Assembly (NCBI RefSeq): GCF_030908245.1 | Contig: NZ_JAVFJJ010000005.1 | Location: forward strand, 62,001 to 126,000 | Direction of reading: 5' to 3' | Source of the DNA: Sinomonas sp. ASV322 | GTDB lineage: Bacteria > Actinomycetota > Actinomycetes > Actinomycetales > Micrococcaceae | Length of the DNA: 64,000 nucleotides | Part shown: piece by piece, positions 7,181 to 29,440 of the stretch | How the letters are laid out: every line of letters begins with the position of its first letter | Position numbering within the stretch: position 1 is the stretch's first letter | Program-made: the position numbers and the translations under genes | Notes under the pieces: model-generated | Databases searched by the model: none | Told to the model about the DNA's origin: nothing | What the model saw: only the letters and a program-made list of their open reading frames with translations

Positions 7181-7195
7181 TTCCGCCTAGTGGAA
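7181..7195. promoter_or_regulatory. Putative IclR-type operator upstream of guaD
   Basis: TTCCGCCTAGTGGAA is an imperfect inverted repeat of the WTCCG-N5-YGRAA type found upstream of four other purine-pathway genes here. It is flanked by two direct copies of TGGAATCCCA (7170-7179 and 7191-7200) exactly 21 bp apart, i.e. two helical turns. It lies ~220 bases upstream of guaD, in the likely promoter region of the minus-strand unit. Confidence 0.55.
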
Positions 7196-7203
7196 TCCCA
7201 CCT

Positions 7204-7458
7204 CATCCAAGGGTCACCACCCGTGGGTCGCGCCTCATCCAAGGGTCACCACCCGCGGGTCGCGCGCGAAAGCACCCACCGAAGGTGACCCCCAAACGCG
7301 CCCACACCCACCGAAGGTGACCCCCAAACGCGCCCACACCCACCGAAGGTGACCCCCAAACGCCCCACACCCACCGAAGGTGACCCCCAAACGCCCCACA
7401 CCCACCGAAGGTGACCCCCAAACGCCCCACACCCACCGAAGGTGACCCCCAAACGGGG
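7204..7458. repeat. Array B of the GGTGACCC repeat family (2 inverted + 6 direct copies)
   Basis: Two copies of CCAAGGGTCACCACCCGYGGGT (7207-7228 and 7239-7260) are followed by six direct copies of ACCCACCGAAGGTGACCCCC starting at 7274, 7306, 7338, 7369, 7400 and 7431 (period 32, 32, 31, 31, 31). Linkers between copies are themselves nearly identical, so this is a tandem array, not a spacer array. It fills the space between the guaD promoter region and the stop of the iclR gene. Confidence 0.9.
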
Positions 7459-7461
7459 GCG

Positions 7462-8217
7462 CTACGCCCGGTTGAGGTCCTCCGAGATCCGCGCCGCAGC
7501 CTCGCGCAGGAGCGGGACGGCGCGCTCGCCGAACGCTTCGTCAACCCGGGACACGGGGCCGGACACGGAGATCGCCGTCGGCGTCGGCGCGTTCGGGACC
7601 GCCATCGAGAAGCAGCGCACGCCGATCTCCTGCTCCTGCTCGTCGATCGAATACCCGCGCGCGCGGATCTTGTCGAGGTCCGCGAGGAGCGTCTCGACGT
7701 TGCCGATGCTGTACGGCGTCGGGGTCGGCATGCCCTGGCGGCCGACGATGGCTCGGACCTGCTCGTCGCCGAGCTGGGAAAGGATCGCCTTGCCCACGCC
7801 GGTGTCGTGGGTGTGGGCGCGACGGCCGACCTCGGTGAACATGCGCATCGAATGCGGCGAAGGGACCTGCGCGACATAGATGACCATGTCGGAATCGAGC
7901 ACGGCCATGTTCGCGGTCTCGCCGAGGAGGTCGACGAGCGTGCGGAGCTCGGGCTGGGCGAGCGCGCCCAGCTGCTTGTTGGCGCCCTCGCCGAGGCGGA
8001 TGAGCCGGGGGCCGAGCGCGTACCGGCGATTCGCGAGCTGCCGGATGTAGCCGAGCGAGACGAGGGTGCGCAGGAGCCGGTGGATCGTCGGCAGAGGAAG
8101 CTCGGTCGACGACGAGAGCTCGCTCAGCGTGACGTCGCCGCCGGCGTCCGTGATGAGTTCGAGGAGCTCGAAGACGCGCTCGACCGACTGAACGCCGCCT
8201 GAGGCCTTCTCGGCCAT
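7462..8217 (-). CDS. IclR-family transcriptional regulator of purine/ureide catabolism (AllR-like)
   Basis: A 251-residue IclR protein: N-terminal winged helix-turn-helix (about residues 10-75, LPTIHRLLRTLVSLGYI) and a C-terminal effector domain containing the family TGVGKAILSQL and GYSIDEQEQEIGVRCFSMAV segments. ATG 8217 was chosen because GGAGG lies 5 bases upstream; a TTG 12 bases earlier is in frame but would place that site inside the gene. It lies between the xanthine and glyoxylate gene units and is divergent from malic enzyme. In Enterobacteria and Streptomyces, IclR-family AllR represses allantoin genes and responds to glyoxylate or ureides; the same role is inferred here. An operator-like site lies in its own promoter region. 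Confidence 0.85.
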   Translation of the reverse strand: MAEKASGGVQSVERVFELLELITDAGGDVTLSELSSSTELPLPTIHRLLRTLVSLGYIRQLANRRYALGPRLIRLGEGANKQLGALAQPELRTLVDLLGETANMAVLDSDMVIYVAQVPSPHSMRMFTEVGRRAHTHDTGVGKAILSQLGDEQVRAIVGRQGMPTPTPYSIGNVETLLADLDKIRARGYSIDEQEQEIGVRCFSMAVPNAPTPTAISVSGPVSRVDEAFGERAVPLLREAAARISEDLNRA

Positions 8218-8265
8218 GGTGTCCTCCAAGGGGGTAGCGGCCGGATACTGGTCCCGGCATTAATT

Positions 8266-8280
8266 ATCCGCATCCCGGAA
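8266..8280. promoter_or_regulatory. Putative IclR-type operator in the iclR promoter
   Basis: ATCCGCATCCCGGAA fits WTCCG-N5-YGRAA with perfect TCCG/CGGA arms. On the minus strand it overlaps a GATAAT sequence about 50 bases upstream of the regulator start, which suggests autoregulation. Confidence 0.5.
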
Positions 8281-8343
8281 ACACTGCGGCTATCACCACG
8301 ATAACGCAGCATCCCCGCACCGGGCCGTGCCACGTCGCGGGAC

Positions 8344-8385
8344 TTGTTTTTCCAAGATGTAGACAATAATATCCGTAGTACGGAA
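8344..8385 (+). promoter_or_regulatory. Malic enzyme promoter with overlapping palindromic operator
   Basis: TTGTTT (8344-8349), 17 bases, then TAATAT (8367-8372) form a good primary-sigma promoter. The -10 box overlaps ATCCGTAGTACGGAA (8371-8385), whose TCCGTA/TACGGA arms are perfect and extend outwards to 8368-8388 with one mismatch. An operator over the -10 and start site implies repression, most simply by the adjacent IclR protein. Confidence 0.6.
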
Positions 8386-8426
8386 ATTGATCGAGGCCGA
8401 TGCCTCCCCGACCGAAGGACGATTCA

Positions 8427-9809
8427 ATGGCGAGTCCCAGCCCCGGAAACTCCATCACCCTCCGCGTCGACGCGCCGTCGCGCATCAGCATCACGGGCGA
8501 GCTCGCCGCCGCTGTCGCGGCCGCCGGCGCCCCGGTCACGGCCCTCGACATCAGCGAGTCCCACCACGACCGCCTCGTCGTCGACATCACGTGCAACACG
8601 ACGTCGGAGCAGCACGCCGAAGACGTCGCCGCCGCGCTCAACGCGCTCGACGGCGTGAGCGTGCGCAAGGTCTCCGACCGCACCTTCCTCATGCACCTCG
8701 GCGGCAAGCTCGAAGTCGTCCCGAAGGTGCCCCTCCGCAACCGCGACGACCTCTCGCGCGCCTACACCCCCGGCGTCGCCCGCGTGTGCCTCGCGATCGC
8801 CGCGAACCCCGAGGACGCCCGCCGCCTGACGGTGAAGCGCAACACGGTCGCCGTCGTCACGGACGGCTCGGCCGTGCTCGGCCTCGGCAACATCGGCCCG
8901 GCCGCCGCCCTCCCCGTCATGGAGGGCAAGGCCGCGCTCTTCAAGCAATTCGCGAACGTCGATGCGTGGCCCGTGTGCCTCGACACGCAGGACACCGAGG
9001 AGATCATCAAGATCGTCAAGGCGATCGCGCCAGTCTATGGCGGCGTGAACCTCGAGGACATCGCCGCTCCCCGCTGCTTCGAGATCGAGGCCCGCCTCCG
9101 CGAAGAGCTCGACATCCCCGTGTTCCACGACGACCAGCACGGCACGGCCATCGTGACGCTCGCCGCGCTCGTCAACGCGCTCAAGCTCGTCGAGAAGAAG
9201 ATCGAGGACGTCCGGATCGTCGTCTCGGGCGTCGGCGCCGCGGGCAACGCGATCATCCAGCTGCTCCTCGCGCAGGGCGCGAAGAACATCGTCGCGTGCG
9301 ACCGCAAGGGCGCGATCCACAAGGGCCTCGAGCTCACGGACGCGCACCGCATCTGGATCGCCGAGAACACCAACCCCGAGTCCTTCTCGGGCACGCTGCA
9401 CGAGGCGCTCAAGGGTGCCGACGTGTTCATCGGCGTCTCCGCGCCGAACCTGTTCGGCCCCGAGCAGGTCGCCACGATGGCCGAGAACGCGATCGTCTTC
9501 GCGATGGCCAACCCCGATCCCGAAACCGACCCGATCGCCGCTGCCGAGTACGCCGCCGTCGTCGCCACCGGCCGCAGCGACTTCCCGAACCAGATCAACA
9601 ACGTCCTCGCGTTCCCCGGCGTCTTCCGGGGCCTGCTCGACGCTGGCGTGGCCGACATCAAGCCTGCCATGCTGGTCGCGGCCGCACAGGCCATCGCGGC
9701 ACGCGTCTCGGACGAGGAGCTCAACGCGAGCTTCATCATCCCGAGCGTGTTCGATCCGCACGTCGCGCAGGACGTCGCCGCGGCCATCGTCGCCGTGGCC
9801 CACGCGTAG
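8427..9809 (+). CDS. NAD(P)-dependent malic enzyme with N-terminal ACT domain
   Basis: It decarboxylates malate to pyruvate, making NAD(P)H. Residues about 10-85 are an ACT-type regulatory domain; the catalytic part follows with YTPGVARVC, the LGLGNIGP segment, the FHDDQHGTAIVTLAAL metal/catalytic region, a Rossmann NAD(P) site (VVSGVGAAGNAI) and FAMANPDPE. The 460-residue length is normal for the ACT-containing type. ATG 8427 is preferred over an in-frame ATG at 8400 because AAGGA lies 8 bases before it. Followed 42 bases later by malate synthase, it can drain the malate formed from purine-derived glyoxylate. Confidence 0.9.
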   Translation: MASPSPGNSITLRVDAPSRISITGELAAAVAAAGAPVTALDISESHHDRLVVDITCNTTSEQHAEDVAAALNALDGVSVRKVSDRTFLMHLGGKLEVVPKVPLRNRDDLSRAYTPGVARVCLAIAANPEDARRLTVKRNTVAVVTDGSAVLGLGNIGPAAALPVMEGKAALFKQFANVDAWPVCLDTQDTEEIIKIVKAIAPVYGGVNLEDIAAPRCFEIEARLREELDIPVFHDDQHGTAIVTLAALVNALKLVEKKIEDVRIVVSGVGAAGNAIIQLLLAQGAKNIVACDRKGAIHKGLELTDAHRIWIAENTNPESFSGTLHEALKGADVFIGVSAPNLFGPEQVATMAENAIVFAMANPDPETDPIAAAEYAAVVATGRSDFPNQINNVLAFPGVFRGLLDAGVADIKPAMLVAAAQAIAARVSDEELNASFIIPSVFDPHVAQDVAAAIVAVAHA

Positions 9810-9851
9810 TTCTTGACAGTTCAGGGAACCAGGGAGAAGGAAAGCAGAACT

Positions 9852-11450
9852 ATGGCCATCACCGTCACCGACACCAACCCGGTCGAGCGCGCCGAGCAGA
9901 TCCTGACCGACGAGGCGCTCGCGTTCGTCGAACAGCTGCACCGGCGCTTCGGCGGCGAGCGCAAGGAGCGCCTCGAGGCCCGCAAGGCACGACGCGCGGA
10001 GGCCGCCTCGACCGGGCGCCTCGACTTCCTGCCCGAGACGGCGGAGATCCGCGCGGGCGACTGGAAGGTCGCCCCGGCGCCCGAGCCGCTCCAGGACCGC
10101 CGCGTCGAGATGACGGGCCCCGCAAGCCCCGCGAAGATGGCCATCAACGCGCTCAACTCGGGCGCGAAGGTGTGGCTCGCGGACATGGAGGACGCGTCGA
10201 GCCCGCACTGGGGCAACGTCGTCGACTCTGTGCTCAACCTCCGCGACGCCGCCCTCGGCACGCTCGCGTACACGTCCCCCGAGGGCAAGGAGTACAGCCT
10301 CCGCACGGACGCGCCGCTCGCCGTCGTCGTCACCCGCCCGCGCGGGTGGCACATGGAGGAGCGCCATGTCCTCATCGACGGCGAGGCCGCCTCGGGCGCC
10401 CTCGTGGACTTCGGCCTTCACTTCTTCCACGTGGCCAAGCTCCTCATCGAGTCGGGCCGCGGCCCGTACTACTACCTCCCGAAGATGGAGAGCCACCTTG
10501 AGGCCCGCCTGTGGAACGAGATCTTCGTGTTCGCGCAGGACTACCTCGGCATTCCGCAGGGCACGATCCGCGCGACGATGCTCATCGAGACCATCCCGGC
10601 CGCGTTCGAGATGGACGAGATCCTGTACGAACTCCGGGACCACGCCTCGGGCCTCAACGCCGGCCGCTGGGACTACCTGTTCAGCATCATCAAGTTCTTC
10701 CGCGATGCGGGCGAGAAGTTCACGCTCCCGGACCGCGCGTCCGTCGTCATGACGGCGCCGTTCATGCGCGCCTACACCGAGCTCCTCGTCCAGACGTGCC
10801 ACAAGCGCGGCGCGTTCGCGATGGGCGGCATGGCGGCGTTCATCCCGAACCGCAGGGAGCCGGAGATCACGGCAGCAGCGATCCAGAAGGTCCGCGCGGA
10901 CAAGACCCGCGAGGCCACGGACGGCTTCGACGGCTCGTGGGTCGCGCACCCGGATCTCGTCGAGACGTGCGAGGCGGTCTTCGACCGCTTCTTGGGCGAA
11001 AAAGCAAACCAGGTCGACCGCCAGCGTCCCGAGGTCCACGTGACCGCGGACGATCTCCTCGACGTCTCCTCCGCCGAGGGCGTCGCGACCGAGGAGGGCC
11101 TGCGCCTCAACCTCTACGTCGCGGTCGCGTACACGGCCGTGTGGCTCTCGGGCAACGGCGCCGTCGCGATCCACAACCTCATGGAGGACGCGGCGACGGC
11201 GGAGATCTCCCGCTCGCAGGTGTGGCAGCAGATCCACAACAAGGTCGTGCTCTCCGACACGGGGAACACCGTCACGCGCGAACTCGTGGGACGCATCCTC
11301 GGCGAGGAGACCGAGCGCCTGCGCGGCGAGGTCGACTCTGACTTGTTCAACAAGTATTACGAGCCGGCGAGCCGCCTTATCGCGGACATCTGCCTCTCGG
11401 AGGACTACACGGACTTCCTCACGACGCCCGCGTACGAGCTGGTCGGCTGA
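9852..11450 (+). CDS. aceB: Malate synthase A
   Basis: It condenses glyoxylate with acetyl-CoA to malate. The 532-residue protein is of the malate synthase A type, with the TIM-barrel signatures VWLADMEDASSPHW, VTRPRGWHMEERH, YYYLPKMESHLEARLWN and the C-terminal LMEDAATAEISRSQ(VWQ) catalytic Asp region. ATG 9852 follows AGAAGGA; an in-frame TTG at 9813 has no ribosome site. The stop codon shares a base with the start of the next gene (TGATG). Its place in a purine cluster, not with isocitrate lyase, indicates use of glyoxylate from ureides. Confidence 0.95.
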   Translation: MAITVTDTNPVERAEQILTDEALAFVEQLHRRFGGERKERLEARKARRAEAASTGRLDFLPETAEIRAGDWKVAPAPEPLQDRRVEMTGPASPAKMAINALNSGAKVWLADMEDASSPHWGNVVDSVLNLRDAALGTLAYTSPEGKEYSLRTDAPLAVVVTRPRGWHMEERHVLIDGEAASGALVDFGLHFFHVAKLLIESGRGPYYYLPKMESHLEARLWNEIFVFAQDYLGIPQGTIRATMLIETIPAAFEMDEILYELRDHASGLNAGRWDYLFSIIKFFRDAGEKFTLPDRASVVMTAPFMRAYTELLVQTCHKRGAFAMGGMAAFIPNRREPEITAAAIQKVRADKTREATDGFDGSWVAHPDLVETCEAVFDRFLGEKANQVDRQRPEVHVTADDLLDVSSAEGVATEEGLRLNLYVAVAYTAVWLSGNGAVAIHNLMEDAATAEISRSQVWQQIHNKVVLSDTGNTVTRELVGRILGEETERLRGEVDSDLFNKYYEPASRLIADICLSEDYTDFLTTPAYELVG

Positions 11451-12781
11451 TGAGCCTGCCCGCCGCGGGCGCCTACCCGAAGGCGGTCTTCGGGGACGCC
11501 GACTACGAGCGGATCGACGCCGGCCTCGCCGACACCGACCGCCTCCTCTCCGATGGCTACCCCGGGGACTCCGGGACGCGCCAGCCCGTGCACACCGTGT
11601 ACGTGCCCGCGGACCGGTACACGCCGTCGATCGCCGCGGACTGGGGCCAGCAGGCCCTGGCCGCGGCGGCCGAGGCCGGCGGGATCCAGCGCCTCGCGGA
11701 GCTCGTGGGCCTCTCCCCCGAGCTCGCCGCCGAGGTCGCCCCGCGCGTCGAGGCGAAGCTGCGCACCGAGGCCATCGAGGATCTGCGGATCGACTTCGAG
11801 GACGGCTATCTGGCCCCGGGAAAGTCGCAGGATCCCGAGGCAACGGAGGACGCCGAGGCCGTCCGGGCGGCTGACCAGGTCGCCGCCGCGATGGCCGCCG
11901 GGACCGCGACGCCGTTCGTCGGCATCCGCTTCAAGTGCTTCGAGGAGGCCACGCGTCGGCGCGGCCTGCGGACGCTCGAGCTCTTCCTGGCGCGGCTCGT
12001 TGGGGTGGGTGGTGGCGGGCCGGACAGCCTCCCCGAGGGATTGATCCTGACCCTGCCCAAGGTGAGCACGGTCGACCAGGTCGAGGCGATGGTCTACGCC
12101 GTCGAACGCCTCGAATCCGCGCTCGGCCTGCACCGGGGCCGCCTCGGGTTCGAGGTCCAGGTCGAGACGCCGCAGCTCATCATCGGCGCGGACGGAAGCC
12201 ACCCGGTGGCCCAGCTCCCGCACAAGGCGGACGGGCGCATCACGGCGCTCCACTACGGCACGTACGACTATTCGGCGTCGCTCCAGATCGCCGCGGCGTA
12301 CCAGTCGATGGAACATCCCGTCGCGGACTTCGCGAAGGAAGTCATGCAGCTCGCGGTCGCCGGGACGGGCATCCGCCTCTCCGACGGGTCGACGAACATC
12401 CTCCCGCTCGGCGACTCCGCCCAGCGCGAGGAGGCGTGGAAGCTCCACGCGCGCCTCGTGCGCCGCTCGCTCGAGCGCGGCTACTACCAGGGCTGGGACC
12501 TTCACGCCCACCAGCTGCCCACGCGGTACATCGCGACCTACGCGTTCTACCGCGAGGGGCTGCCCCAGGCGACCGAGCGCCTCCGCAACTACGTCCAGCA
12601 GACCGTCGGCGCCGTCCTCGACGAGCCCGCGACGGCCCGCGCCCTTGCGGCCTTCGTGCTGCGCGGCGTCCAGTGCGGCGCGGTCGGCGCGGACGAGGTG
12701 CAGGTCTCAGCTGGTCTCACGGAAGCTGAGCTCACGCGCCTCGCACACCCGCACCTCCGGGTTGCTTTGAATTCGAACTAG
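11450..12781 (+). CDS. DUF6986-type protein of the HpcH/HpaI aldolase-like fold
   Basis: This 443-residue protein resembles the HpcH/HpaI and citrate/malyl-CoA lyase TIM-barrel superfamily. Visible superfamily features are RIDFEDGY (acidic metal-binding region), PFVGIRFK, LILTLPKVS with the barrel Lys, and GFEVQVETPQLI with the Glu of the metal site. The proteins usually called DUF6986 have no established reaction. It overlaps aceB by one base and precedes ureidoglycine aminohydrolase by 30 bases, so it is made together with ureide and glyoxylate enzymes. A C-C or C-N lyase acting on a glyoxylate- or ureidoglycolate-type substrate is a reasonable guess only. Confidence 0.8.
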   Translation: MSLPAAGAYPKAVFGDADYERIDAGLADTDRLLSDGYPGDSGTRQPVHTVYVPADRYTPSIAADWGQQALAAAAEAGGIQRLAELVGLSPELAAEVAPRVEAKLRTEAIEDLRIDFEDGYLAPGKSQDPEATEDAEAVRAADQVAAAMAAGTATPFVGIRFKCFEEATRRRGLRTLELFLARLVGVGGGGPDSLPEGLILTLPKVSTVDQVEAMVYAVERLESALGLHRGRLGFEVQVETPQLIIGADGSHPVAQLPHKADGRITALHYGTYDYSASLQIAAAYQSMEHPVADFAKEVMQLAVAGTGIRLSDGSTNILPLGDSAQREEAWKLHARLVRRSLERGYYQGWDLHAHQLPTRYIATYAFYREGLPQATERLRNYVQQTVGAVLDEPATARALAAFVLRGVQCGAVGADEVQVSAGLTEAELTRLAHPHLRVALNSN

Positions 12782-12811
12782 CTTCGACCTCCCACTAGTA
12801 AGGACTCACAC

Positions 12812-13642
12812 ATGGGCAAGTACTACTACCCCGAGGGCGGCCTGCCGCCACAGACCCACCTCACGACCGAGCGCGCGATCGTCAAGGAGGCCTACACGGT
12901 CATCCCGAAGGGCGTCCTGACCGACATCGTCACGAGCAACCTCCCGGGCTTCACGAACACGCGTGCGTGGATCATCGCGCGCCCCATCTCGGGGTTCGCG
13001 ACGACGTTCTCCCAGCTCATCGTCGAGATCGGCCCGGGCGGCGCTGCCCCGAAGGCCGAGTTCGAGGCGGGCGTCGAAGGCGTCGTCTTCGTGACGAAGG
13101 GCAAGGTCAACCTCACGCTCGGCGGTGAAGTGCACGAGCTCGAGGAGGGCGGCTACGCCTACCTCGCCGCAGGCGACGCGTGGGGCCTCGAGAACGCCTC
13201 GGAAGACATCGTCTCGTTCCACTGGATCCGCAAGGCGTACGAGCGGCTCGAGGGCTACGAGGCCAAGTCCTTCGTGACGAGCGACGCCGAGGTCGCACCC
13301 CGCGAGATGCCGAACGTCAACGGCGTGTGGAAGACCACGCGCTTCGTGGACCCGGACGACCTCGCGCATGACATGCACGTGAACATCGTGACCTTCCAGC
13401 CCGGCGGCGTGATCCCGTTCCCCGAGACCCACGTCATGGAGCACGGCCTCTACGTGCTCGAGGGCAAGGCCATGTACCTCCTCAACAACGACTGGGTCGA
13501 GGTCGAGGCCGGCGACTTCATGTGGCTCCGCGCGTTCTGCCCGCAGGCCTGCTACGCGGGCGGCCCGGGCGAGTTCCGGTACCTCCTCTACAAGGACGTC
13601 AACCGCCAGGTCCGCCTCACGGGCGCGCCGCTCCCGGGCTGA
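12812..13642 (+). CDS. allE: (S)-ureidoglycine aminohydrolase (bicupin)
   Basis: It hydrolyses (S)-ureidoglycine to (S)-ureidoglycolate and ammonia, the step after allantoate deimination. The 276 residues form two cupin domains; the C-terminal one has the manganese site FPETHVMEHGLYVLEG (Glu, His, His) and a downstream Gln in CPQACYAGG. Length and the opening YYYPEGGLPPQT match YlbA/AllE proteins closely. ATG 12812 follows an AGTAAGGA-like site. It closes the malic enzyme-aceB-DUF6986-allE unit and is followed by a strong hairpin. Confidence 0.93.
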   Translation: MGKYYYPEGGLPPQTHLTTERAIVKEAYTVIPKGVLTDIVTSNLPGFTNTRAWIIARPISGFATTFSQLIVEIGPGGAAPKAEFEAGVEGVVFVTKGKVNLTLGGEVHELEEGGYAYLAAGDAWGLENASEDIVSFHWIRKAYERLEGYEAKSFVTSDAEVAPREMPNVNGVWKTTRFVDPDDLAHDMHVNIVTFQPGGVIPFPETHVMEHGLYVLEGKAMYLLNNDWVEVEAGDFMWLRAFCPQACYAGGPGEFRYLLYKDVNRQVRLTGAPLPG

Positions 13643-13704
13643 CCCCCACCCGCCCGCGACCCATCTCACCCGCCCGGCCGACCTCGGCGGCGGGCCCCCA
13701 AAGC

Positions 13705-13751
13705 ACGACGGCGCGGGGCAGGACTGGCACTGAGCCGCCCCGCGCCGTCGT
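13705..13751 (+). terminator. Terminator-like hairpin after allE
   Basis: ACGACGGCGCGGGGC (13705-13719) and GCCCCGCGCCGTCGT (13737-13751) are perfectly complementary over 15 bp around a 17-base loop. There is no T-tract, as is common for actinobacterial terminators. Confidence 0.75.
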
Positions 13752-13898
13752 ACCCACCTGACGGGCACACGCCCCCGCCCGATCTCACCCACCCGCCACC
13801 CATACTCTCCGCCCCCGGTCGCGCAACGCCGGGGGCGGAGGCCCTTAAACCGCTCGAAGGCGCATTGTCGCCGACTGGCAGCAAAGGAGGGGGCTAGC

Positions 13899-13974
13899 AC
13901 CGGCGGATTTGCCCCTGACCGGCGGAAATAACGGCAACCGGCGGAAATGCGCAAAACCGGCGGAACCGCAAGGC
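13899..13974. repeat. Four 19-bp direct repeats, ACCGGCGGAAAT core
   Basis: Copies of ACCGGCGGA(A/T)(A/C/T)(T/C) start at 13899, 13918, 13937 and 13956, so the period is exactly 19 bp. The remaining 7 bases of each unit differ. They lie immediately downstream of the YjbR gene stop (13977), in the gap between two 3' ends. No known element was recognised. Confidence 0.85.
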
Positions 13975-13976
13975 GC

Positions 13977-14291
13977 TCAGCTTCTCCCCGCCCCGCCCGC
14001 GATCCGGTACGACTCCCCGATCATCTCCGCGAGCTCGTCGCGACGAATCCGCTCGAGCCGAACCAGCACGAGGTTCGCCGGGGGGCGCTCGTGATGCTGC
14101 GTCCAGAAGAACGTGTCGGGATCGGTGGCCGCGAGCGCCTCGCGCTCCTCGGTCTTGAGCGTCACGACTCCGGGCTCCCAGATCCGCGCGAAGAGGGTTC
14201 TCGCGAACCACGCCGGCTGCTGCCAGCTCATGCGCTCAGTGACTCCGGGGAGCGCGAGGCACAGCGCGCGGACGTCGCCCTCAGTCGCCAT
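13977..14291 (-). CDS. MmcQ/YjbR-family DNA-binding-fold protein
   Basis: A 104-residue protein with the YjbR/MmcQ pattern: LALPGVTERMSWQQPAWFA at the N-terminus, a WEPGVVTLKT strand and FFWTQHHERPPANLVLVRL. The fold resembles the CyaY/MotA DNA-binding fold; no biochemical role is established. ATG 14291 was chosen because it begins 2 bases after the stop of the upstream RibD-like gene, and an upstream extension in the frame is only a shadow of that gene. Confidence 0.82.
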   Translation of the reverse strand: MATEGDVRALCLALPGVTERMSWQQPAWFARTLFARIWEPGVVTLKTEEREALAATDPDTFFWTQHHERPPANLVLVRLERIRRDELAEMIGESYRIAGGAGRS

Positions 14292-14293
14292 GG

Positions 14294-14860: not shown

Positions 14861-14897
14861 GCACCCCACCGTGACACTCGCCCGGACGATGCGGCAA

Positions 14898-14921: not shown

Positions 14922-14927
14922 CAACGC

Positions 14928-19615: not shown

Positions 19616-19621
19616 GCGTCC

Positions 19622-20698: not shown

Positions 20699-20705
20699 GA
20701 AGGGC

Positions 20706-22202: not shown

Positions 22203-22239
22203 CCCAGGCCCCCTCCCACCGCCCGACGCATCACCAACT

Positions 22240-22417
22240 TCCCCAACTCCTACCGCCGATCTCCCCAGTTTCCGGACCGGCTTCCCCAGCTCTTGGCGAC
22301 GACACGCTGCGTGCAGCGTCCGGACACCGGCGTGTCCCGCCGTCGTCCGCTCGAAAACCGGGGAGGTTGGCCCAGGCGATGGGGAGGCTGGCGCAAGACC
22401 CGGGGAACCCGGCTCGC
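22240..22417. repeat. 21-bp phased GGGGA repeats in inverted arrangement
   Basis: On the plus strand GGGGAGGTTGGC, GGGGAGGCTGGC and GGGGAACCCGGC start at 22360, 22381 and 22402, exactly 21 bp apart. On the minus strand related units with GGGGA start at 22287, 22266 and 22244. The two halves face each other around ~70 bases. The same unit occurs twice, again 21 bp apart, at 39395-39432. No known element was recognised. Confidence 0.75.
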
Positions 22418-22519
22418 AAACCGACGAAGCGGACCCTCGAACTCGGGCGCCCCGAGGAGGTATACCGGGTTGACCCCGCTCACACCCGAGGCCTACACTT
22501 TCATCAAGAGAAAATCTTC

Positions 22520-22534
22520 TTCCGCAATGTGAAA
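22520..22534. promoter_or_regulatory. Putative IclR-type operator upstream of hyi
   Basis: TTCCGCAATGTGAAA matches the left half of the WTCCG-N5-YGRAA sites perfectly and the right half with GAA instead of GGA. It lies 38 bases upstream of the hyi start. Confidence 0.45.
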
Positions 22535-22572
22535 GACTGACCCACGTGTCAAGCGAAGAGAGGCCCCTGACA

Positions 22573-23367
22573 ATGACGTATACGGTGAACTGCTCCATCC
22601 TCCTCACGGAGCTTCCGCTCCTCGAGCGCCCGGCCGCCGCGAAGGCAGCGGGCTTCGACGCCGTCGAGTTCTGGTGGCCCTTCGCCGAGGCCGTTCCGGC
22701 CGACAAGGATGTCGACGCCTTCGTGTCCGCGATCAAAGACGCCGGCGTGCAGCTGAGCGGCCTCAACTTCTTCGCGGGAGACATGCCCGCGGGCGACCGC
22801 GGCCTCGTCTCGTGGACCGGCCGCGAGGGCGAGTTCAAGGCCAACATCGCGGTCGTCGCAGCCATCGGCGAGCGCCTCGGCACGAAGGCCTTCAACGCCC
22901 TCTACGGCAACCGCCTCGAGGGGGCCACTCCGGAGGCGCAGGATGAGCTCGCCCTCGAGAACCTCGTCGCCGCAGCGAAGGGCATCGCCGAGATCGGCGG
23001 CACCGTGCTCCTCGAGCCCGTCTCCGGCACACCGGCCTACCCGCTCAAGACCGCCGCGGACGCGCTCGCCGTCATCGCGAAGACGCAGGAGGCCGGCGTC
23101 GACAACATCAAGCTCCTCGCGGATTTCTACCACCTCGCGGTCAACGGCGACGACGTCGCGGCCGTCATCGAGCAGCATGCGAAGGACTTCGGCCACATCC
23201 AGATCGCCGACAACCCCGGCCGCGGCGCCCCCGGCACCGGCGAGCTCCCGCTCGGCGAGTGGATCGCCCGCTCCCGCGAGCTCGGGTACGAGGGCTACAT
23301 CGGCCTCGAGTACAAGGCCCCGCAGGCCGAGGCCTTCACGTGGGCCATCCGGCCGGTCAACGGCTGA
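22573..23367 (+). CDS. hyi: Hydroxypyruvate isomerase
   Basis: It interconverts hydroxypyruvate and tartronate semialdehyde. The 264-residue xylose-isomerase-type TIM barrel has the family signatures FWWPF near residue 37, LNFFAGDMPAGDRGL, LLEPVS (metal-binding Glu), DFYHLAVNGDD, HIQIADNPGRGAPGTGEL and GYIGLEYKA. ATG 22573 (AGAGG 11 bases upstream) is favoured over the GTG at 22546. It is the first gene of hyi-glxR-gcl-glxK-allB, which converts glyoxylate to glycerate phosphate. Confidence 0.93.
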   Translation: MTYTVNCSILLTELPLLERPAAAKAAGFDAVEFWWPFAEAVPADKDVDAFVSAIKDAGVQLSGLNFFAGDMPAGDRGLVSWTGREGEFKANIAVVAAIGERLGTKAFNALYGNRLEGATPEAQDELALENLVAAAKGIAEIGGTVLLEPVSGTPAYPLKTAADALAVIAKTQEAGVDNIKLLADFYHLAVNGDDVAAVIEQHAKDFGHIQIADNPGRGAPGTGELPLGEWIARSRELGYEGYIGLEYKAPQAEAFTWAIRPVNG

Positions 23368-23437
23368 GCAGCCCTCCGGCCCCGCCGGCCCTCCCCAAGC
23401 AGCCCACCCGCCCCACAGACTTCCCAGGAGATCACCA

Positions 23438-24316
23438 ATGAGCAACGTTGCAGTCATCGGTCTCGGCATCATGGGCCTTCCCATGGCCGTCAACCTCGTC
23501 AAGGCCGGCCACCAGGTCACCGGCTACAACCGCAGCACGGACAAGATCCAGAAGCTCGTCGGCGAGGGCGGCAACGGCGCCGAGAGCATCGCCGAAGCCG
23601 TCAAGGATGCCGACGTCGTCATCACGATGGTGCCCGACTCCCCCGACGTCGAAGCGGTCGTGAGCGGACCGGACGGCGTGTTCGCGAACGCGAAGCCGGG
23701 CGCCCTCTGGATCGACGCGTCCTCGATCCGCCCCGACGTCGCGGTCCGCCTCTCGGAGGACGCCCGTGCGGCCGGCATCCGCCCGCTTGACGCCCCGGTC
23801 TCCGGCGGTGAGCAGGGCGCGATCGACGCGGTCCTCTCGATCATGGTCGGCGGCGCCCCCGAGGACTTCGAGGCCGCGCAGCCCGTCCTCAATGCGGTCG
23901 GCAAGACGATCGTCCACGTCGGCCCCTCGGGCTCCGGCCAGACGGTCAAGGCCGCGAACCAGCTCATCGTCGCCGTCAACATCCAGGCGCTCTCCGAGGC
24001 CATCGTGTTCCTCGAGGCCTACGGCGTGGACACCGACGCGGCGCTCAAGGTCCTCGGCGGCGGCCTCGCCGGCTCGAAGGTCCTGGACCAGAAGGGCCAG
24101 AAGATGCTCGACCGCAACTTCGACCCCGGCTTCCGTCTGGCCCTCCACAACAAGGACCTCGGCATCGTCACCTCCGCGGCCCGCGAGGCCGGCGTCGTCG
24201 TCCCGCTCGGCGCGGCTGTCGCCCAGCTCGTGTCCGCTCTCGTCGCCCGCGGCGATGGTGGCCTCGACCACTCGGGGCTGTTCAAACTCACCAACGAACT
24301 CTCCGGCAAGAACTAA
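23438..24316 (+). CDS. glxR: 2-hydroxy-3-oxopropionate (tartronate semialdehyde) reductase
   Basis: It reduces tartronate semialdehyde to D-glycerate with NAD(P)H. The 292-residue beta-hydroxyacid dehydrogenase starts with the nucleotide-binding [17 protein letters not shown], has [11 protein letters not shown] (substrate site), [14 protein letters not shown] with the catalytic Lys, and a C-terminal NKDLGI helix region. ATG 23438 has AGGAG 8 bases upstream. It lies between hyi and gcl as in other glyoxylate-carboligase operons. Confidence 0.94.
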
Positions 24317-24344
24317 GACTTCAAGACACGAAAGGAGCACCGAC

Positions 24345-26132
<1,788 letters not shown>

Positions 26133-26138
26133 GCCGAG

Positions 26139-27338
26139 GTGAAGATCGTCCTCGCCCCGGACAAGTTCAAGGGCTCGCTCACGGCCCCCGAGGTCGCCGA
26201 GGCGCTCGCCGACGGCATCCGCGGGGAGCTTCCCGAGGCAGAGCTCGTCCTGGTCCCAGTGGCCGACGGCGGCGTGGGCACGGTGAGTGCGGCGCTCGGC
26301 GCGGGGTTCTCCCCGCGCCGAGCGCGCGTCTCCGGCCCCACCGGCCAGCCGCTCACGGCCGAGTTCGCCGTGGATCCCGCACGCGGCCGCGCCGTCGTCG
26401 AAATGGCCGCCGCCTCCGGCCTCGACGCGCTTCCTGGGGGCGTCAAAGATGCCCGAAATGCGACGAGCCTCGGCACCGGCCAGCTCATCCGTGCAGCGCT
26501 CGACGCGGGCGCGCGCGAGATCGTCCTCGGCGTCGGCGGGAGCGCGTGCACCGACGGCGGCGCCGGCATGCTCCAGGGCCTCGGCGCGCGCTTCACGGAC
26601 GACGCCGGCAACGAGCTTCCGCTCGGCGGCGCGGCCCTCGCGCGCATCGCGGAGGCGGACCTCGGCGGGCTCGACGCTCGACTCGACGCCGCACAACTGA
26701 TCCTTGCCGCCGACGTCGACAATCCCCTGCTCGGCGACCGCGGCGCCGCCGCCGTGTTCGGCCCGCAGAAGGGGGCCACGCCGTCGGACGTCGTGGAGCT
26801 CGACGCGGCCCTCGCGCGCTTCGCCGACGTCCTCGGCGCGGCGCTCGGCTCGCGCGCGGTCGCGGCCAAGGACGCGCCGGGCGCCGGTGCGGCCGGCGGC
26901 GTCGGCTACGCGGCACTGGCCCTTGGCGCGCAGCGCAGGCGCGGCATCGACGTCGTCGTCGAATTCACCGGCCTGCGGGAAAAGCTCGAAGGCGCCTCGC
27001 TCGTCGTCACGGGCGAGGGAAGCCTCGACGCGCAGTCCCTCTCGGGGAAGGCACCGGTCGGCGTCGCCGCGGAGGCGCGCGCCCAGAACGTGCCTGTCGT
27101 TGCGGTGTGCGGGCGGAGCCAGCTCGACGGCGCCGCGCGCGCCTCCGCGGGATTCACCGCCGTCCACGCGCTCACCGATATTGAGGCCGACGTCGAGGTG
27201 TGCATCCGCGACGCCCGTCGCCTCGTCCGCGAGACGGGCCGGATCATCGCGCAGGGCCTCGCCGCCCAAGCGCCCTCGGGAACGTCGGAGGGCGTCACTA
27301 TTGTTGAGACTGACAGCAGGAAGGAGTCTGTGCGATGA
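26139..27338 (+). CDS. glxK: Glycerate kinase (GlxK/GarK family)
   Basis: It phosphorylates D-glycerate, passing purine carbon to glycolysis. The 399 residues show the family opening KIVLAPDKFKGSLTAPEVAEAL, VPVADGGVGT, GVGGSACTDGGAGMLQGLGA and VVTGEGSLDAQSLSGKAP. It starts at GTG 26139 just after gcl and overlaps allB by 4 bases (ATGA). The family makes 2-phosphoglycerate in most characterised members. Confidence 0.93.
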   Translation: MKIVLAPDKFKGSLTAPEVAEALADGIRGELPEAELVLVPVADGGVGTVSAALGAGFSPRRARVSGPTGQPLTAEFAVDPARGRAVVEMAAASGLDALPGGVKDARNATSLGTGQLIRAALDAGAREIVLGVGGSACTDGGAGMLQGLGARFTDDAGNELPLGGAALARIAEADLGGLDARLDAAQLILAADVDNPLLGDRGAAAVFGPQKGATPSDVVELDAALARFADVLGAALGSRAVAAKDAPGAGAAGGVGYAALALGAQRRRGIDVVVEFTGLREKLEGASLVVTGEGSLDAQSLSGKAPVGVAAEARAQNVPVVAVCGRSQLDGAARASAGFTAVHALTDIEADVEVCIRDARRLVRETGRIIAQGLAAQAPSGTSEGVTIVETDSRKESVR

Positions 27339-28678
27339 ATGACATCGAGTTCGACCTCGTCATCCGCGGGCAGCGGGTCCTCACGACGGCGGGCATTGTG
27401 CCGCGCGAGGTGGGCATCATCGACGGGCGCATCGTCGCGCTCGAGCCGTTCGGCAACGGCCTCTCGGGGCGCGAGGTCATCGAACTCGCCGACGACGAGA
27501 CGCTCATCCCGGGCCTCGTGGACAGCCACGTCCACGTCAACGAGCCCGGCCGCACGGAGTGGGAGGGCTTCGCCTCCGCGACAAAGGCGGCCGCGGCCGG
27601 CGGCGTGACGACGATCATCGACATGCCGCTCAACAGCATCCCGCCGACGACCAACGTCGAGGCGCTCAAGCTCAAGCGCACCTCCGCGGAGACGCAGTCG
27701 TTCGTCGACGTGGGCTTCTGGGGCGGCGCGATCCCGGGCAACACGGGCGATCTGCGCGCGCTGCACGACGAGGGCGTCTTCGGCTTCAAGTGCTTCCTGC
27801 TCCATTCGGGCGTCGACGAGTTCCCGCACCTCGAGGTCGACGAGCTCGAGAAGGACCTCGCGGAGATCGCGTCGTTCGACGGGCTCATGATCGTCCACGC
27901 CGAGGATTCGCGCGCGATCGACCGTGCGCCCAACCCGGACGGCGACGTCTACGACAGCTTCCTCCACTCGCGCCCGCGCGGCGCCGAGAACGTCGCGATC
28001 GCCGAGGTCATCGAGCGGGCCCGCTGGACCGGTGCGCGCGCCCACATCCTGCACCTCTCGTCGTCGGACGCCCTGCCCATGATCGCCACGGCGAAGCGCG
28101 ACGGCGTCAAGCTCACCGTCGAGACGTGCCCGCACTACCTCACGCTCCTGGCCGAGGAGATCCCGAACGGCGCGACGGCGTTCAAGTGCTGCCCGCCGAT
28201 CCGCGAGGCGTCCAACCGCGAGCTCTTGTGGAAGGGCCTCGAGGACGGCGTCATCGACTGCATCGTCTCGGACCACTCTCCCAGCACGATCGATCTCAAG
28301 GACCTCAAGAACGGCGACTTCGGCGTCGCGTGGGGCGGCGTCGCGTCGCTCCAGCTCGGGCTCTCGATCATCTGGACCGAGGCCCGGCGCCGCGGCATTC
28401 CGCTCGAGCGCGTGGTCGAGTGGATGGGCCACCGGCCGGCGCAGCTCGCGCGCCTTCAGCGCAAGGGCCTCCTCGCCCCCGGATACGACGCCGACCTCGC
28501 GATCTTCGCGGCGGACGACGCGTTCGTCGTCGACGCGGACAAGCTGCACCACAAGAACCACATCACGCCGTACCAGGGCAAGACCCTCTCCGGCGTGGTG
28601 CGCCGCACCTTCGTGCGCGGCACCGAGGTGGACTTCGGCGCGCCCAAGGGCCAGCTGATCCGCCGCGGCACGGCCTGA
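27335..28678 (+). CDS. allB: Allantoinase
   Basis: It hydrolyses allantoin to allantoate. The 447-residue cyclic amidohydrolase has the metal motif DSHVHVNEPGRTEWEGF (residues about 62-78), GFKCFL with the Lys that is normally carbamylated, HAED and HILHLSS metal His residues and the catalytic Asp in VSDHSP. VNEPGRTEWEGF and TTIIDMPLNSIPPT are typical of allantoinases rather than dihydropyrimidinases. It overlaps glxK by 4 bases, so ureide entry and glyoxylate assimilation are made from one transcript. Confidence 0.94.
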   Translation: MNDIEFDLVIRGQRVLTTAGIVPREVGIIDGRIVALEPFGNGLSGREVIELADDETLIPGLVDSHVHVNEPGRTEWEGFASATKAAAAGGVTTIIDMPLNSIPPTTNVEALKLKRTSAETQSFVDVGFWGGAIPGNTGDLRALHDEGVFGFKCFLLHSGVDEFPHLEVDELEKDLAEIASFDGLMIVHAEDSRAIDRAPNPDGDVYDSFLHSRPRGAENVAIAEVIERARWTGARAHILHLSSSDALPMIATAKRDGVKLTVETCPHYLTLLAEEIPNGATAFKCCPPIREASNRELLWKGLEDGVIDCIVSDHSPSTIDLKDLKNGDFGVAWGGVASLQLGLSIIWTEARRRGIPLERVVEWMGHRPAQLARLQRKGLLAPGYDADLAIFAADDAFVVDADKLHHKNHITPYQGKTLSGVVRRTFVRGTEVDFGAPKGQLIRRGTA

Positions 28679-28700
28679 CCCCCTACAGGAGGAGGAACCT

Positions 28701-29174
28701 ATGACAACCACCACGAATCTCGCCGCCGGGCAGCCGGCCCCCGAGTTCACGCTCCCGGACGCGTCCGGGACAGGCGTCTCACTCGCGGACTACCGCGGCC
28801 GCCGCGTGGTCGTGTACTTCTACCCGAAGGCCGCGACGCCCGGCTGCACGACCGAGGCGTGCGACTTCCGCGACAGCCTCGATGCGCTCAACGCCGCGGG
28901 CGTGAGCGTCGTCGGCATCTCGCCCGATCCGGTCGAGGCCATCGCCTCGTTCGCCGACGACTACAGCCTCACCTATCCGCTCCTCGCTGACGACGGCGCC
29001 GCCGTCGCCAAGGCGTGGGGCGCGTGGGGCGAGAAGATCGTGAACGGCGAGGTCGTCGAGGGCATCCTGCGTTCGACGGCGGTTGTCGCCCCCGATGGCA
29101 CCGTCGAGTCGGTCGACTACGCCGTTCAGGCGGACGGCCACGTCGCCGCACTGCGGGACCGCCTCGGCGTCTGA
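28701..29174 (+). CDS. bcp: Thioredoxin-dependent peroxiredoxin (BCP/PrxQ)
   Basis: It reduces hydrogen peroxide and organic peroxides. The 157-residue protein has PKAATPGCTTEACDFRDS, containing the peroxidatic Cys and the second Cys five residues later, as in PrxQ proteins. ATG 28701 has a very strong AGGAGGAGG site. It is the last gene before a T-tract terminator. A peroxidase in this unit makes sense because urate oxidase and possibly xanthine oxidation release hydrogen peroxide. Confidence 0.93.
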   Translation: MTTTTNLAAGQPAPEFTLPDASGTGVSLADYRGRRVVVYFYPKAATPGCTTEACDFRDSLDALNAAGVSVVGISPDPVEAIASFADDYSLTYPLLADDGAAVAKAWGAWGEKIVNGEVVEGILRSTAVVAPDGTVESVDYAVQADGHVAALRDRLGV

Positions 29175-29195
29175 CAGCTCCCCCAGCGACCCTCG

Positions 29196-29228
29196 GGCCC
29201 CGGACACTGCGTCCGGGGCCCTTTTTTC
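29196..29228 (+). terminator. Rho-independent terminator after bcp
   Basis: GGGCCCCGGAC (29196-29206) pairs perfectly with GTCCGGGGCCC (29212-29222) around ACTGC and is followed by six Ts. Confidence 0.93.
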
Positions 29229-29373
29229 GACCCCACCCGCGCTTCCTGCCCGGTTGTATCTTCCCCATCAGTCGCGATCGCGGCGTGTTTCGGCCCGGCG
29301 CGGCTTGGGCCCGAGAAGAACCGGGCTGGAGCGCGGCCCGCAACGCGCGCGAAACAGGTCACACAGTAGGGTG

Positions 29374-29392
29374 TTGACAATCACACTGTGAT
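29374..29392 (+). promoter_or_regulatory. -35 box and palindrome upstream of uraD
   Basis: A consensus TTGACA (29374-29379) is followed at once by ATCACA-C-TGTGAT (29380-29392), a perfect 13-base palindrome in the promoter spacer. A convincing -10 at the right spacing is not clear (CACACT near 29397). The palindrome differs from the WTCCG sites, so a second regulator is likely. Confidence 0.45.
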
Positions 29393-29425
29393 GCACCACA
29401 CTAATTACACATGCTGAAATAACAG

Positions 29426-29440
29426 TTCCACGATACGGAA
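29426..29440. promoter_or_regulatory. Putative IclR-type operator upstream of uraD
   Basis: TTCCACGATACGGAA has GTTCC/GGAAC outer arms and fits the purine-pathway operator pattern. A further half-site GTTCCGTAT at 29455-29463 makes a perfect 9-bp inverted repeat with ATACGGAAC (29433-29441), 13 bases apart. Both lie upstream of the uraD-pucM-uricase unit. Confidence 0.55.

What the first reader, a model, noticed from the sequence alone, without database searches (positions are those of the whole stretch)
7181..29440. Five matching near-palindromes define a local purine/glyoxylate regulon
TTCCGCCTAGTGGAA (7181), ATCCGCATCCCGGAA (8266), ATCCGTAGTACGGAA (8371), TTCCGCAATGTGAAA (22520) and TTCCACGATACGGAA (29426) all fit WTCCG-N5-YGRAA or nearly so. 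Each lies in a promoter region of a separate purine-pathway unit (guaD, iclR, malic enzyme, hyi, uraD). One overlaps a good -10 box. The only IclR protein in the window lies between the first two units, so one AllR-like repressor coordinating xanthine, urate, allantoin and glyoxylate genes over 24 kb is the simplest reading. I did not see the motif in gaps next to unrelated genes.
Basis: partly seen in the sequence, partly recalled or inferred. Interest (0 to 1): 0.7.

Follow-up and report, generated by a model that had tools for sequence, protein, structure and literature searches.

The report
AllR-type purine and glyoxylate gene switch
One glyoxylate-sensing repressor appears to control, together, the genes this soil bacterium uses to break purines down to glyoxylate and burn it; the switch is of a known type, but its paired operators, a second pyruvate-dehydrogenase gene and a tiny unknown protein under its control look new.

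Summary
All five 15-mers are at the stated places. A matrix built only from other genera's sites ranks them as the five best hits in the window. The motif stands before iclR, malic enzyme, hyi, uraD and guaD in many relatives and rarely before genes inside the operons. It fits the IclR-family group-1 consensus.

This points to a tetrameric repressor.

The IclR protein is about 60% identical to proteins in Streptomyces and Streptomyces-like genomes, near allantoinase, with similar operators. It keeps 4 of 5 glyoxylate-contacting residues. I read it as a glyoxylate-responsive AllR orthologue, a known kind.

Outside the window the motif adds a second pyruvate dehydrogenase E1 (AceE2), a conserved ~60-residue protein of no known family, and an FAH-family hydrolase. 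Operators: 16 of 17 cluster-linked aceE copies, 0 of 17 housekeeping copies. In other named genera an aceE near iclR often lacks the operator. Malate synthase, malic enzyme and AceE2 would make a dedicated malate cycle, beside the Gcl-Hyi-GlxR-GlxK route.

No binding was measured.

The parts
7465..8217 (-). AllR-type IclR-family regulator (251 aa from ATG at 8217; the longest frame, from TTG, is 7462-8229)
   Evidence: PF09339 HTH_IclR 59 bits and PF01614 IclR_C 123 bits; NCBIfam best BhcR 181 bits, below its cut-off of 350; orthologues 52-93% identical in 30 of 58 relatives including itself
7181..7195 (-). operator for the guaD-permease-xdhC-xdhB unit, TTCCACTAGGCGGAA on the gene strand, with a half-site TTCCA 21 bp downstream (gene sense)
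   Evidence: held-out score 17.5; half-site begins TTYCA in all 11 guaD rows examined
8266..8280 (-). single operator about 50 bp before iclR (autoregulation, inferred)
   Evidence: held-out score 13.0; identical 15-mer in 14 of 14 other same-genus loci
8371..8385 (+). main operator of the malic enzyme operon; overlaps a TAATAT -10
   Evidence: held-out score 16.0
8350..8364 (+). distal partner operator, 21 bp upstream, inside the -35/-10 spacer
   Evidence: score 11.4 at -21, best of offsets 15-45 on both sides; in relatives 23 of 28 iclR/mae rows score >=7 at this offset
8344..8372 (+). likely promoter TTGTTT-N17-TAATAT of the malic enzyme operon (read by eye)
   Evidence: sequence; below the scanner's threshold
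8424..9809 (+). malic enzyme
   Evidence: PF00390, PF03949; NF009501 350 bits, below that model's cut-off of 1178
9813..11450 (+). malate synthase A
   Evidence: TIGR01344 740 bits over cut-off 594.5
11450..12781 (+). DUF6986 protein (weak malyl-CoA-lyase match)
   Evidence: PF22484 581 bits; NF041626 22 bits, cut-off 500
12812..13642 (+). (S)-ureidoglycine aminohydrolase / allantoicase-type AllE
   Evidence: NF008376 479 and NF040771 456 bits, both over cut-off
22520..22534 (+). main operator of the hyi operon
   Evidence: held-out score 24.6, best in window
22499..22513 (+). distal partner operator, 21 bp upstream, starting at the last base of the -10
   Evidence: score 11.7; >=7 at -21 in 19 of 28 genomes, 0 of 28 at any other offset from 10 to 45
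22470..22499 (+). promoter-like TTGACC-18-TACACT
22546..23367 (+). hydroxypyruvate isomerase (Hyi)
   Evidence: TIGR03234 244 bits, below cut-off 353
23438..24316 (+). tartronate semialdehyde reductase (GlxR)
   Evidence: TIGR01505 376 bits over cut-off 341; start read from the translation
24345..26132 (+). glyoxylate carboligase (Gcl)
   Evidence: TIGR01504 1110 bits over cut-off 711; start set near where the model begins
26139..27338 (+). glycerate kinase (GlxK)
   Evidence: TIGR00045 372 bits
27335..28678 (+). allantoinase AllB
   Evidence: TIGR03178 551 bits
29426..29440 (+). main operator of the uraD operon
   Evidence: held-out score 22.2
29405..29419 (+). distal partner operator, 21 bp upstream
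   Evidence: score 11.4; >=7 at -21 in 17 of 27 genomes
29474..30010 (+). OHCU decarboxylase UraD
   Evidence: TIGR03180 205 bits
30007..30348 (+). 5-hydroxyisourate hydrolase
   Evidence: TIGR02962 143 bits
30355..31278 (+). urate oxidase
   Evidence: TIGR03383 367 bits
31428..33023 (+). xanthine/urate permease
   Evidence: TIGR03173 507 bits
6458..6964 (-). guanine deaminase-like (GuaD)
   Evidence: PF00383 84 bits; the name guaD is inferred from context
4903..6447 (-). purine permease
   Evidence: PF00860 99 bits
3454..4776 (-). XdhC-type maturation factor
   Evidence: NF045664 175 bits, below cut-off 350
2588..3463 (-). FAD-binding molybdopterin dehydrogenase subunit, presumed xanthine dehydrogenase
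   Evidence: PF00941 45 bits

Best explanation
The five palindromes are operators of one IclR-family repressor, an orthologue of Streptomyces AllR, encoded at 7465-8217. Without glyoxylate, a tetramer (inferred) binds two palindromes whose centres are 21 bp apart, on one face of the DNA. The strong box lies nearest the gene and the weak box lies over or just behind the -10, which blocks RNA polymerase. Glyoxylate, made when purines are degraded through allantoin, binds the C-terminal domain and releases the protein (inferred from residues). This turns on xanthine and urate oxidation, allantoin hydrolysis and two ways to use glyoxylate: the glycerate route (Gcl, Hyi, GlxR, GlxK) and a malate cycle (malate synthase A, malic enzyme and AceE2, a second pyruvate dehydrogenase E1 under the same operator 4 kb left of the window). 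Shown here: site positions, pairing, conservation, co-occurrence, gene content. Inferred: binding by this protein, repression, glyoxylate as signal, flux through the malate cycle.
For: Sites real and held-out best in the window. Conserved across genera. In 80 named loci (the best 80 of 583) a site >=13 stands before iclR in 78 of 80, mae 59 of 59, hyi 35 of 37, uraD 21 of 24, guaD 18 of 21, uox 18 of 41, but before genes inside operons in few: allE 0 of 59, DUF6986 2 of 59, hiuH 0 of 23, xdhB 0 of 10, glxR 1 of 32, gcl 1 of 29; in between are aceB 8 of 51, glxK 5 of 30, allB 3 of 14. In 20 of the 80 loci 103 hits against 0-12 for 20 permuted matrices. Pairing at exactly 21 bp. Group-1 consensus and 18-22 nt tandem spacing are family traits (PMC8222616, passages). 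Regulator and hyi co-occur: hyi in 28 of 58 genomes, all with the orthologue; orthologue in 30. Ligand pocket: aligned with E. coli IclR, 4 of 5 residues named in PMC11323563 Table 1 as binding glyoxylate/pyruvate oxygens are kept (Gly160, Asp212, Ser239, Ser241; 161 is Val, Ile in BhcR), while 3 of 4 pyruvate-methyl-patch residues differ; the kept ones are invariant or nearly so in 18 orthologues. AceE2: operator at 16 of 17 cluster-linked copies (14 of the window's genus, 2 of other genera), 0 of 17 housekeeping copies; cluster copies fall on one side of a 98/98 branch; thiamine site kept. Some motif hits elsewhere lead to malate synthase G, lactate/glycolate-type permeases, an allantoin-permease-like protein and DctA.
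Against: No binding, expression or ligand data. The genome holds 13 other IclR_C proteins, and one lies between look-alike sites (C3:94483, 95298) beside a 4-hydroxybenzoate hydroxylase gene, so cross-binding is possible. BhcR, the closest curated family, acts as an activator in vivo (PMC11323563, passages). The iclR and guaD sites lack a full partner; guaD sites lie about 230 bp upstream and no promoter was placed there. G051 has the orthologue but no site before uraD, G025 no good site before iclR, and G019's cluster aceE has none. In the named loci an aceE lies within 10 kb of iclR with its 5' end readable in 19; a site >=13 stands within 300 bp in 4, about 1 kb upstream in 4, and is below 13 in 11, Brevibacterium and Kocuria among them. 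Of the distant loci L328 and L330 have no site. Only two uraD genomes without the orthologue were read. The second matrix was built from sites at the same gene classes, so searches are not fully independent.
Confidence: 0.85

Rival explanations
1. The same protein binds the same sites but works as an activator, or as activator and self-repressor, like BhcR of Paracoccus.
For: BhcR is the closest curated family by score (181 bits against 154 for IclR and 113 for E. coli AllR; all below cut-off) and is reported to activate its enzyme operon (PMC11323563, passages).
Against: In the window the operators overlap or follow the -10 (8350/8371 with TAATAT 8367-8372; 22499/22520 after TACACT ending 22499), where a bound protein blocks polymerase. 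Streptomyces AllR is a repressor by recall (Navone et al. 2015, not held); PMC12772271 says a homologue in S. [quoted passage not shown] passage).
Confidence: 0.1
2. A different regulator, for example another of the 14 IclR_C proteins, binds these sites, and the neighbouring iclR gene is only a target.
For: 13 other IclR_C proteins in the genome; several IclR factors use similar half-sites (PMC8222616, passages).
Against: The site and the orthologue travel together over genera and, in Streptomyces-like and many more distant genomes, the motif lies next to this gene. The hydroxybenzoate-linked sites have the core TTCAA/TTGAA, not YAWTR, and no partner at 21 bp.
Confidence: 0.05
3. The motif similarity is chance or shared ancestry of promoters without function.
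Against: Held-out ranking, cross-genus conservation, rarity inside operons and the fixed 21-bp partner.
Confidence: 0.01

Closest known systems
AllR of Streptomyces coelicolor (SCO6246 by recall; Navone et al. 2015, AEM 81:6649, not held)
   Same: IclR-family regulator of allantoin genes (title seen in a reference list; glyoxylate genes recalled). A named Streptomyces (BHT-5-2, L333) and eight Streptomyces-like genomes carry a 59-61% identical protein; in all eight it is divergent from allB with an operator pair 21 bp apart between them, and in L333 allB starts some 3 kb away.
   Different: Here the regulon also covers malic enzyme, xanthine oxidation, a second AceE, a small protein and an FAH hydrolase. 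I could not check which of these are in the Streptomyces regulon, nor compare the published operator.
AllR of Escherichia coli
   Same: IclR-family repressor of allantoin and gcl genes whose DNA binding falls with glyoxylate (PMC11323563, passages).
   Different: Only 113 bits against the E. coli AllR model, cut-off 406. Its site is given as KTTGGAAWAWTWTTCCAAC (PMC8222616 Table 1), with half-sites arranged differently.
BhcR of Paracoccus denitrificans
   Same: Best curated model match (181 bits, cut-off 350); most of the pyruvate patch differs as in BhcR, and position 161 is bulkier than Ala.
   Different: Controls the beta-hydroxyaspartate cycle as an activator; the target genes here are others. 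I did not search this genome for bhc genes.
IclR-family group-1 operators with tandem 18-22 nt spacing (PMC8222616)
   Same: Motif and spacing fit.
Malate cycle of Cupriavidus necator (PMC7486775)
   Different: The passages seen say nothing of a PDH copy under a glyoxylate regulator; here a separate AceE paralogue carries the operator.

Membership tests
IclR family of transcription factors | HTH_IclR plus IclR_C domains | tested here: met
   PF09339 59.3 bits (cut-off 22), PF01614 122.7 bits (cut-off 24)
IclR family of transcription factors | group-1 palindromic operator, often in tandem 18-22 nt apart | tested here: met
   consensus TTYCRYAWTRYGRAA; pairs at 21 bp; definition from PMC8222616; binding itself not tested
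AllR of Streptomyces (orthologue) | gene neighbourhood with allantoinase and malate synthase | tested here: met
   L333: allB, regulator (60.6%), aceB; eight g46 genomes with the regulator divergent from allB. That this is SCO6246's orthologue is inferred; SCO6246 itself was not fetched
AllR of Streptomyces (orthologue) | represses allantoin genes and is released by a pathway ligand | not testable with these tools
   needs bench work
AllR of E. coli (NCBIfam PRK10163 equivalog) | score over the curated cut-off | tested here: not met
   112.7 bits against 406
BhcR (NCBIfam NF045644 equivalog) | score over the curated cut-off | tested here: not met
   181.3 bits against 350
Glyoxylate-sensing IclR proteins | residues that hold the ligand's oxygens (IclR 160, 161, 212, 239, 241) | tested here: inconclusive
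   4 of 5 identical, 161 is Val; pyruvate patch 1 of 4 identical; ligand not measured
[quoted passage not shown]
   genes and operators; not so in every named relative
Malate cycle | carries flux from glyoxylate | not testable with these tools
   needs mutants and tracer

The most novel reading that the evidence does not exclude
In Sinomonas and some relatives the AllR-type regulator controls a complete, dedicated malate cycle for burning glyoxylate. A separate lineage of pyruvate dehydrogenase E1 (AceE2) was recruited beside malate synthase A and malic enzyme and carries the tandem glyoxylate operator, while the housekeeping aceE stays free of it. A conserved ~60-residue protein of no known family is expressed with it and may serve this pathway, perhaps as a partner or adaptor of AceE2 (a guess). 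(Probability lowered from 0.55, which found no site >=13 near aceE in 11 of 19 named loci.)
Probability: 0.5. Interest if true: 0.6.

Novelty: new variant of a known kind. Interest (0 to 1): 0.5.

Why it matters
It joins purine breakdown, the glycerate route and a malate cycle under one predicted switch, and gives an operator (two TTYCRYAWTRYGRAA boxes 21 bp apart) that picks out new targets in actinobacterial genomes. A second pyruvate dehydrogenase E1 under a glyoxylate operator would explain how acetyl-CoA is regenerated when glyoxylate is the fuel, and makes that directly testable. The small protein is a concrete unknown with a predicted growth condition in which to look for it.

Tried and rejected
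Rejected: chance. I held stretches with all 12 distinct exact places of the tighter pattern TTCCRYN3RYGGAA. A 21-bp partner is present at C29:58168, 91426 and 133663, a half-site at 69181, and none at the other eight. Those on C3 lie near a 4-hydroxybenzoate hydroxylase gene with its own IclR protein.

Led nowhere: a first guess that the C29:133663 site marked the missing tartronate semialdehyde reductase; that gene is in the window (23438-24316) and the site is before an FAH-family hydrolase. The promoter scanner found nothing at mae or uraD. Literature: the key paper on Streptomyces AllR is not held. Searches for aceE with allantoinase, malate synthase and glyoxylate carboligase, Arthrobacter purine clusters with IclR, Sinomonas with glyoxylate and the dicarboxylic acid cycle (15 of 153 papers listed) showed no paper describing an AceE in such a regulon; only listings were read, except the passages cited.

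Not done: structure prediction; a genome-wide scan for the pair; a test of the six further uraD genomes without the regulator, which had no locus; a count of aceE copies in the named genomes.

Rows dropped or mis-scored: one search gave 20 FAH places, I scored 19 (L284 left out). mis-placed the start of the small protein in L009 and L033 (an upstream in-frame ATG); one search scored them again, without finding L033's start codon. A weak small-protein match in L275 was not used. One search gave aceE2 as 5 of 22 with a site, from rough gene starts; redid this on the 19 loci with a readable 5' end, leaving out 8 where the match begins deep inside the gene. The uraD, hyi and guaD tables include the window's own sites, which trained that matrix. 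The label 'cluster' for G008's aceE is a presumption: it is on another contig from iclR. My notebook entry counted 13 single-copy aceE rows; there are 14.
Full report
Where it is. The window is contig C29:62001-126000 of a 4.34 Mb, 33-contig genome with 70% G+C in the window. Its genus is probably Sinomonas: the same-genus genome G011 holds the regulator at contig coordinates 82943-83695, the coordinates of the named Sinomonas mesophila record L145; this is my inference.

The sites. A matrix from the five sites alone, run over relatives, finds equally good sites upstream of the same genes: iclR (with the divergent malic enzyme gene) mean best score 18.2 against 6.3 for permuted matrices, 28 of 29 rows at 15.0 or more; hyi 19.1 against 7.0, 28 of 28; uraD 17.5 against 6.2, 27 of 30 rows >=14; guaD 10.4 against 5.4, 12 of 30 rows >=13. 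Ten of those 12 guaD genes lie within 8 kb of iclR; the other 18 guaD copies score 1.1-12.6. A second matrix from 39 sites of other genera ranks the five window sites first in the window. Its consensus is TTYCRYAWTRYGRAA, the IclR-family group-1 type GKTYCRYW3-4RYGRAMC (PMC8222616, passages).

The pair. The next-best hits sit exactly 21 bp upstream of the main ones: 8350/8371, 22499/22520, 29405/29426 in the window, and L009:8147/8168 and 11489/11468 to its left. In relatives the partner scores >=7 at -21 in 19 of 28 hyi regions and in none at any other offset from 10 to 45; in 17 of 27 uraD regions (4 more at +21, where the upstream box was the stronger, and 1 each at 14 and 43); and in 23 of 28 iclR/mae regions on the mae-upstream side (1 each at two other offsets). 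At guaD only a half-site (TTYCA) is kept, in 11 of 11 rows. Tandem sites 18-22 nt apart are a known IclR trait ascribed to tetramers (PMC8222616). At hyi the promoter-like TTGACC-18-TACACT ends at 22499, so the boxes start at the end of the -10; at mae they fill the spacer and overlap a TAATAT -10 (by eye). This is repressor geometry.

The protein. It is an IclR-family regulator. Curated models place it nearest BhcR (181 bits), then IclR (154), PcaR/PcaU (143), KdgR (135) and E. coli AllR (113), all below cut-off. Orthologues 52-93% identical occur in 30 of 58 relatives including the window's own. All 28 genomes with a hyi hit have it, and none of the 28 genomes without it has hyi at E<=1e-25. 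Over the phylum, 36 of 296 genomes have a match at E<=1e-45. Eight genomes of one genus of 7-10 Mb, which I take for Streptomyces, have it at 59-61% identity, divergent from allantoinase, with an operator between them and a 21-bp partner >=7 in 8 of 8. The named Streptomyces sp. BHT-5-2 record has allB, the regulator and malate synthase in that order, with a site before the regulator (13.9, partner 8.8) and one before malate synthase (15.0, no partner). More distant genomes with about 40% identity still carry the motif before the regulator and hyi (L324-L327), while L328 and L330 have none. That Streptomyces coelicolor AllR is this protein is recalled, with a citation seen in PMC12772271. Aligned with E. 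coli IclR, the protein keeps Gly160, Asp212, Ser239 and Ser241, has Val at 161, and differs at 3 of 4 positions of the pyruvate patch; BhcR differs at 4 of 4 (PMC11323563 Table 1). I infer glyoxylate as the signal.

The genes. Left unit: deaminase, permease, XdhC, an FAD subunit, and a minus-strand frame running off the left edge that I presume to be the large xanthine dehydrogenase subunit but did not test. Right of iclR: malic enzyme, malate synthase A, DUF6986, AllE. Farther right: hyi, glxR, gcl, glxK, allB, prxQ; then uraD, hiuH, urate oxidase, permease.

Named sample. In the best 80 of 583 named loci (Arthrobacter, Pseudarthrobacter, Sinomonas, Microbacterium, Cryobacterium, Kocuria, Brevibacterium and others) a site >=13 stands before iclR in 78 of 80, mae 59 of 59, hyi 35 of 37, uraD 21 of 24, guaD 18 of 21 and uox 18 of 41; less often before aceB 8 of 51, glxK 5 of 30, allB 3 of 14, permease 2 of 19; and seldom before other genes inside operons (allE 0 of 59, DUF6986 2 of 59, hiuH 0 of 23, xdhB 0 of 10, glxR 1 of 32, gcl 1 of 29, pbuX 1 of 33, xdhC 1 of 17, prxQ 1 of 15). 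Sixty-eight further sites were not before a mapped gene. I looked at 14 of these and at eight nearby proteins: malate synthase G and a lactate/glycolate-type permease (L182), permeases of that kind (L187, L196), DctA-like (L155), an allantoin-permease-like NCS1 protein (L221), a frame with a UraD domain (L214) and an HpcH/HpaI aldolase-like protein (L176). The theme is glyoxylate as much as purine.

AceE2. The site at C29:58168 (score 23.9, partner 9.5) precedes a pyruvate dehydrogenase E1 gene (TIGR00759 1377 bits). A second aceE lies elsewhere in the genome. Scored over relatives: cluster-linked copies 16 of 17 with a site of 14.7-26.3, 15 of 17 also with a partner >=4.5; housekeeping copies 0 of 17 (best 5.4); single copies 1 of 14 >=13 (G028, 14.5 with partner 9.8). 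In a tree of 29 AceE rows, the 11 cluster copies (10 of the window's genus, 1 of another) are one side of a branch with support 98/98; the G004 row is cut short and long-branched, and several second copies were not in the tree. AceE2 keeps the thiamine diphosphate motif and aligns with the housekeeping copy over nearly its whole length. Against a general rule: in the named loci, 19 have an aceE with readable 5' end within 10 kb of iclR; a site >=13 stands within 300 bp in 4 (L171, L191, L193, L201), about 1 kb upstream in 4 (L166, L173, L176, L178), and is below 13 in 11, including six Brevibacterium and two Kocuria. Whether those are the only aceE copies was not tested. With malate synthase and malic enzyme AceE2 makes the malate cycle described for Cupriavidus necator (PMC7486775, passages).

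Small protein. The site at C29:61468 (18.1, partner 13.6) is 36 bp before a 53-codon frame. Matches (tblastn E from 2e-8 to 0.88, so some are weak alone) occur in four other loci of the genus and seven Arthrobacter/Pseudarthrobacter loci. All 12 rows have a site >=18 near the frame, and 10 of 12 a partner >=7 at -21 (10 rows scored, L009 and L033; L033's partner is 3.6, L173 has none). Invariant residues: Y, P, D-P-D and W (8 rows). No Pfam or NCBIfam family in 3 members scanned (best Pfam E 0.25).

FAH hydrolase. C29:133663 (27.9, partner 7.3) begins 34 bp before an FAA_hydrolase family gene. A site stands there in 6 of 19 homologues scored, all of the window's genus, five of them 70-74% identical to the sixth, the query; the other 13, among them a 70% identical copy in the same genome, score at most 10.4.

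Verdict. Observation confirmed; interpretation supported and enlarged; the switch is a known kind (AllR), with variant features: the fixed 21-bp pair, AceE2 and the small protein. No paper listed by my searches was seen to describe AceE2 or the small protein in such a regulon; that is not proof of absence.

Noticed in passing
L009:11431-11270 (-), C29:61431-61270, 0.6 kb left of the window: A 53-codon frame of a conserved ~53-75-residue protein family with no Pfam or NCBIfam match, preceded by the operator, mostly paired, in the window's genus and Arthrobacter.
   Followed up: partly
C29:58168-58182 and 58273 onward, 4 kb left of the window: Second pyruvate dehydrogenase E1 gene with the tandem operator, absent from the housekeeping copy.
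   Followed up: yes
C29:133663-133677 (would be window position 71663): Highest-scoring operator seen in this genome (27.9) with a 21-bp partner, before an FAH-family hydrolase next to dnaK.
   Followed up: partly
window 7273-7455, 52799-52916; L009:11067-11190: Intergenic tandem arrays of 31-32 bp units sharing a core like GGTGACCCC, at three places in or near the window.
   Followed up: no
window 11450-12781: DUF6986 protein sits between malate synthase and AllE in the operator-controlled unit; a weak malyl-CoA-lyase match hints at a lyase-like enzyme.
   Followed up: no
G000:C3:94483, 95298 and 110059 (L225): TTCCGTTGAACGGAA-type sites, two of them flanking another IclR gene next to a 4-hydroxybenzoate hydroxylase gene, one near a protocatechuate dioxygenase gene: a separate regulon, it seems, with a different core and no 21-bp partner.
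   Followed up: partly
L334 (Arthrobacter dokdonellae plasmid pDCT5): A 79% identical regulator lies near malate synthase G and an FAD-linked oxidase on a plasmid; no match to the window's other genes was found there, and the only site >=12 is weak (12.3).
   Followed up: no
L212, L213, L216, L218, L220, L223 (Brevibacterium) and L200, L214 (Kocuria): An aceE lies within 10 kb of iclR but with no site >=13 in 1.5 kb upstream; whether it is the only copy is unknown.
   Followed up: no
G004:C1:2895130 onward (L247): The cluster aceE frame ends early (439 codons before the first stop) in this one genome, either decay or a sequence error.
   Followed up: no
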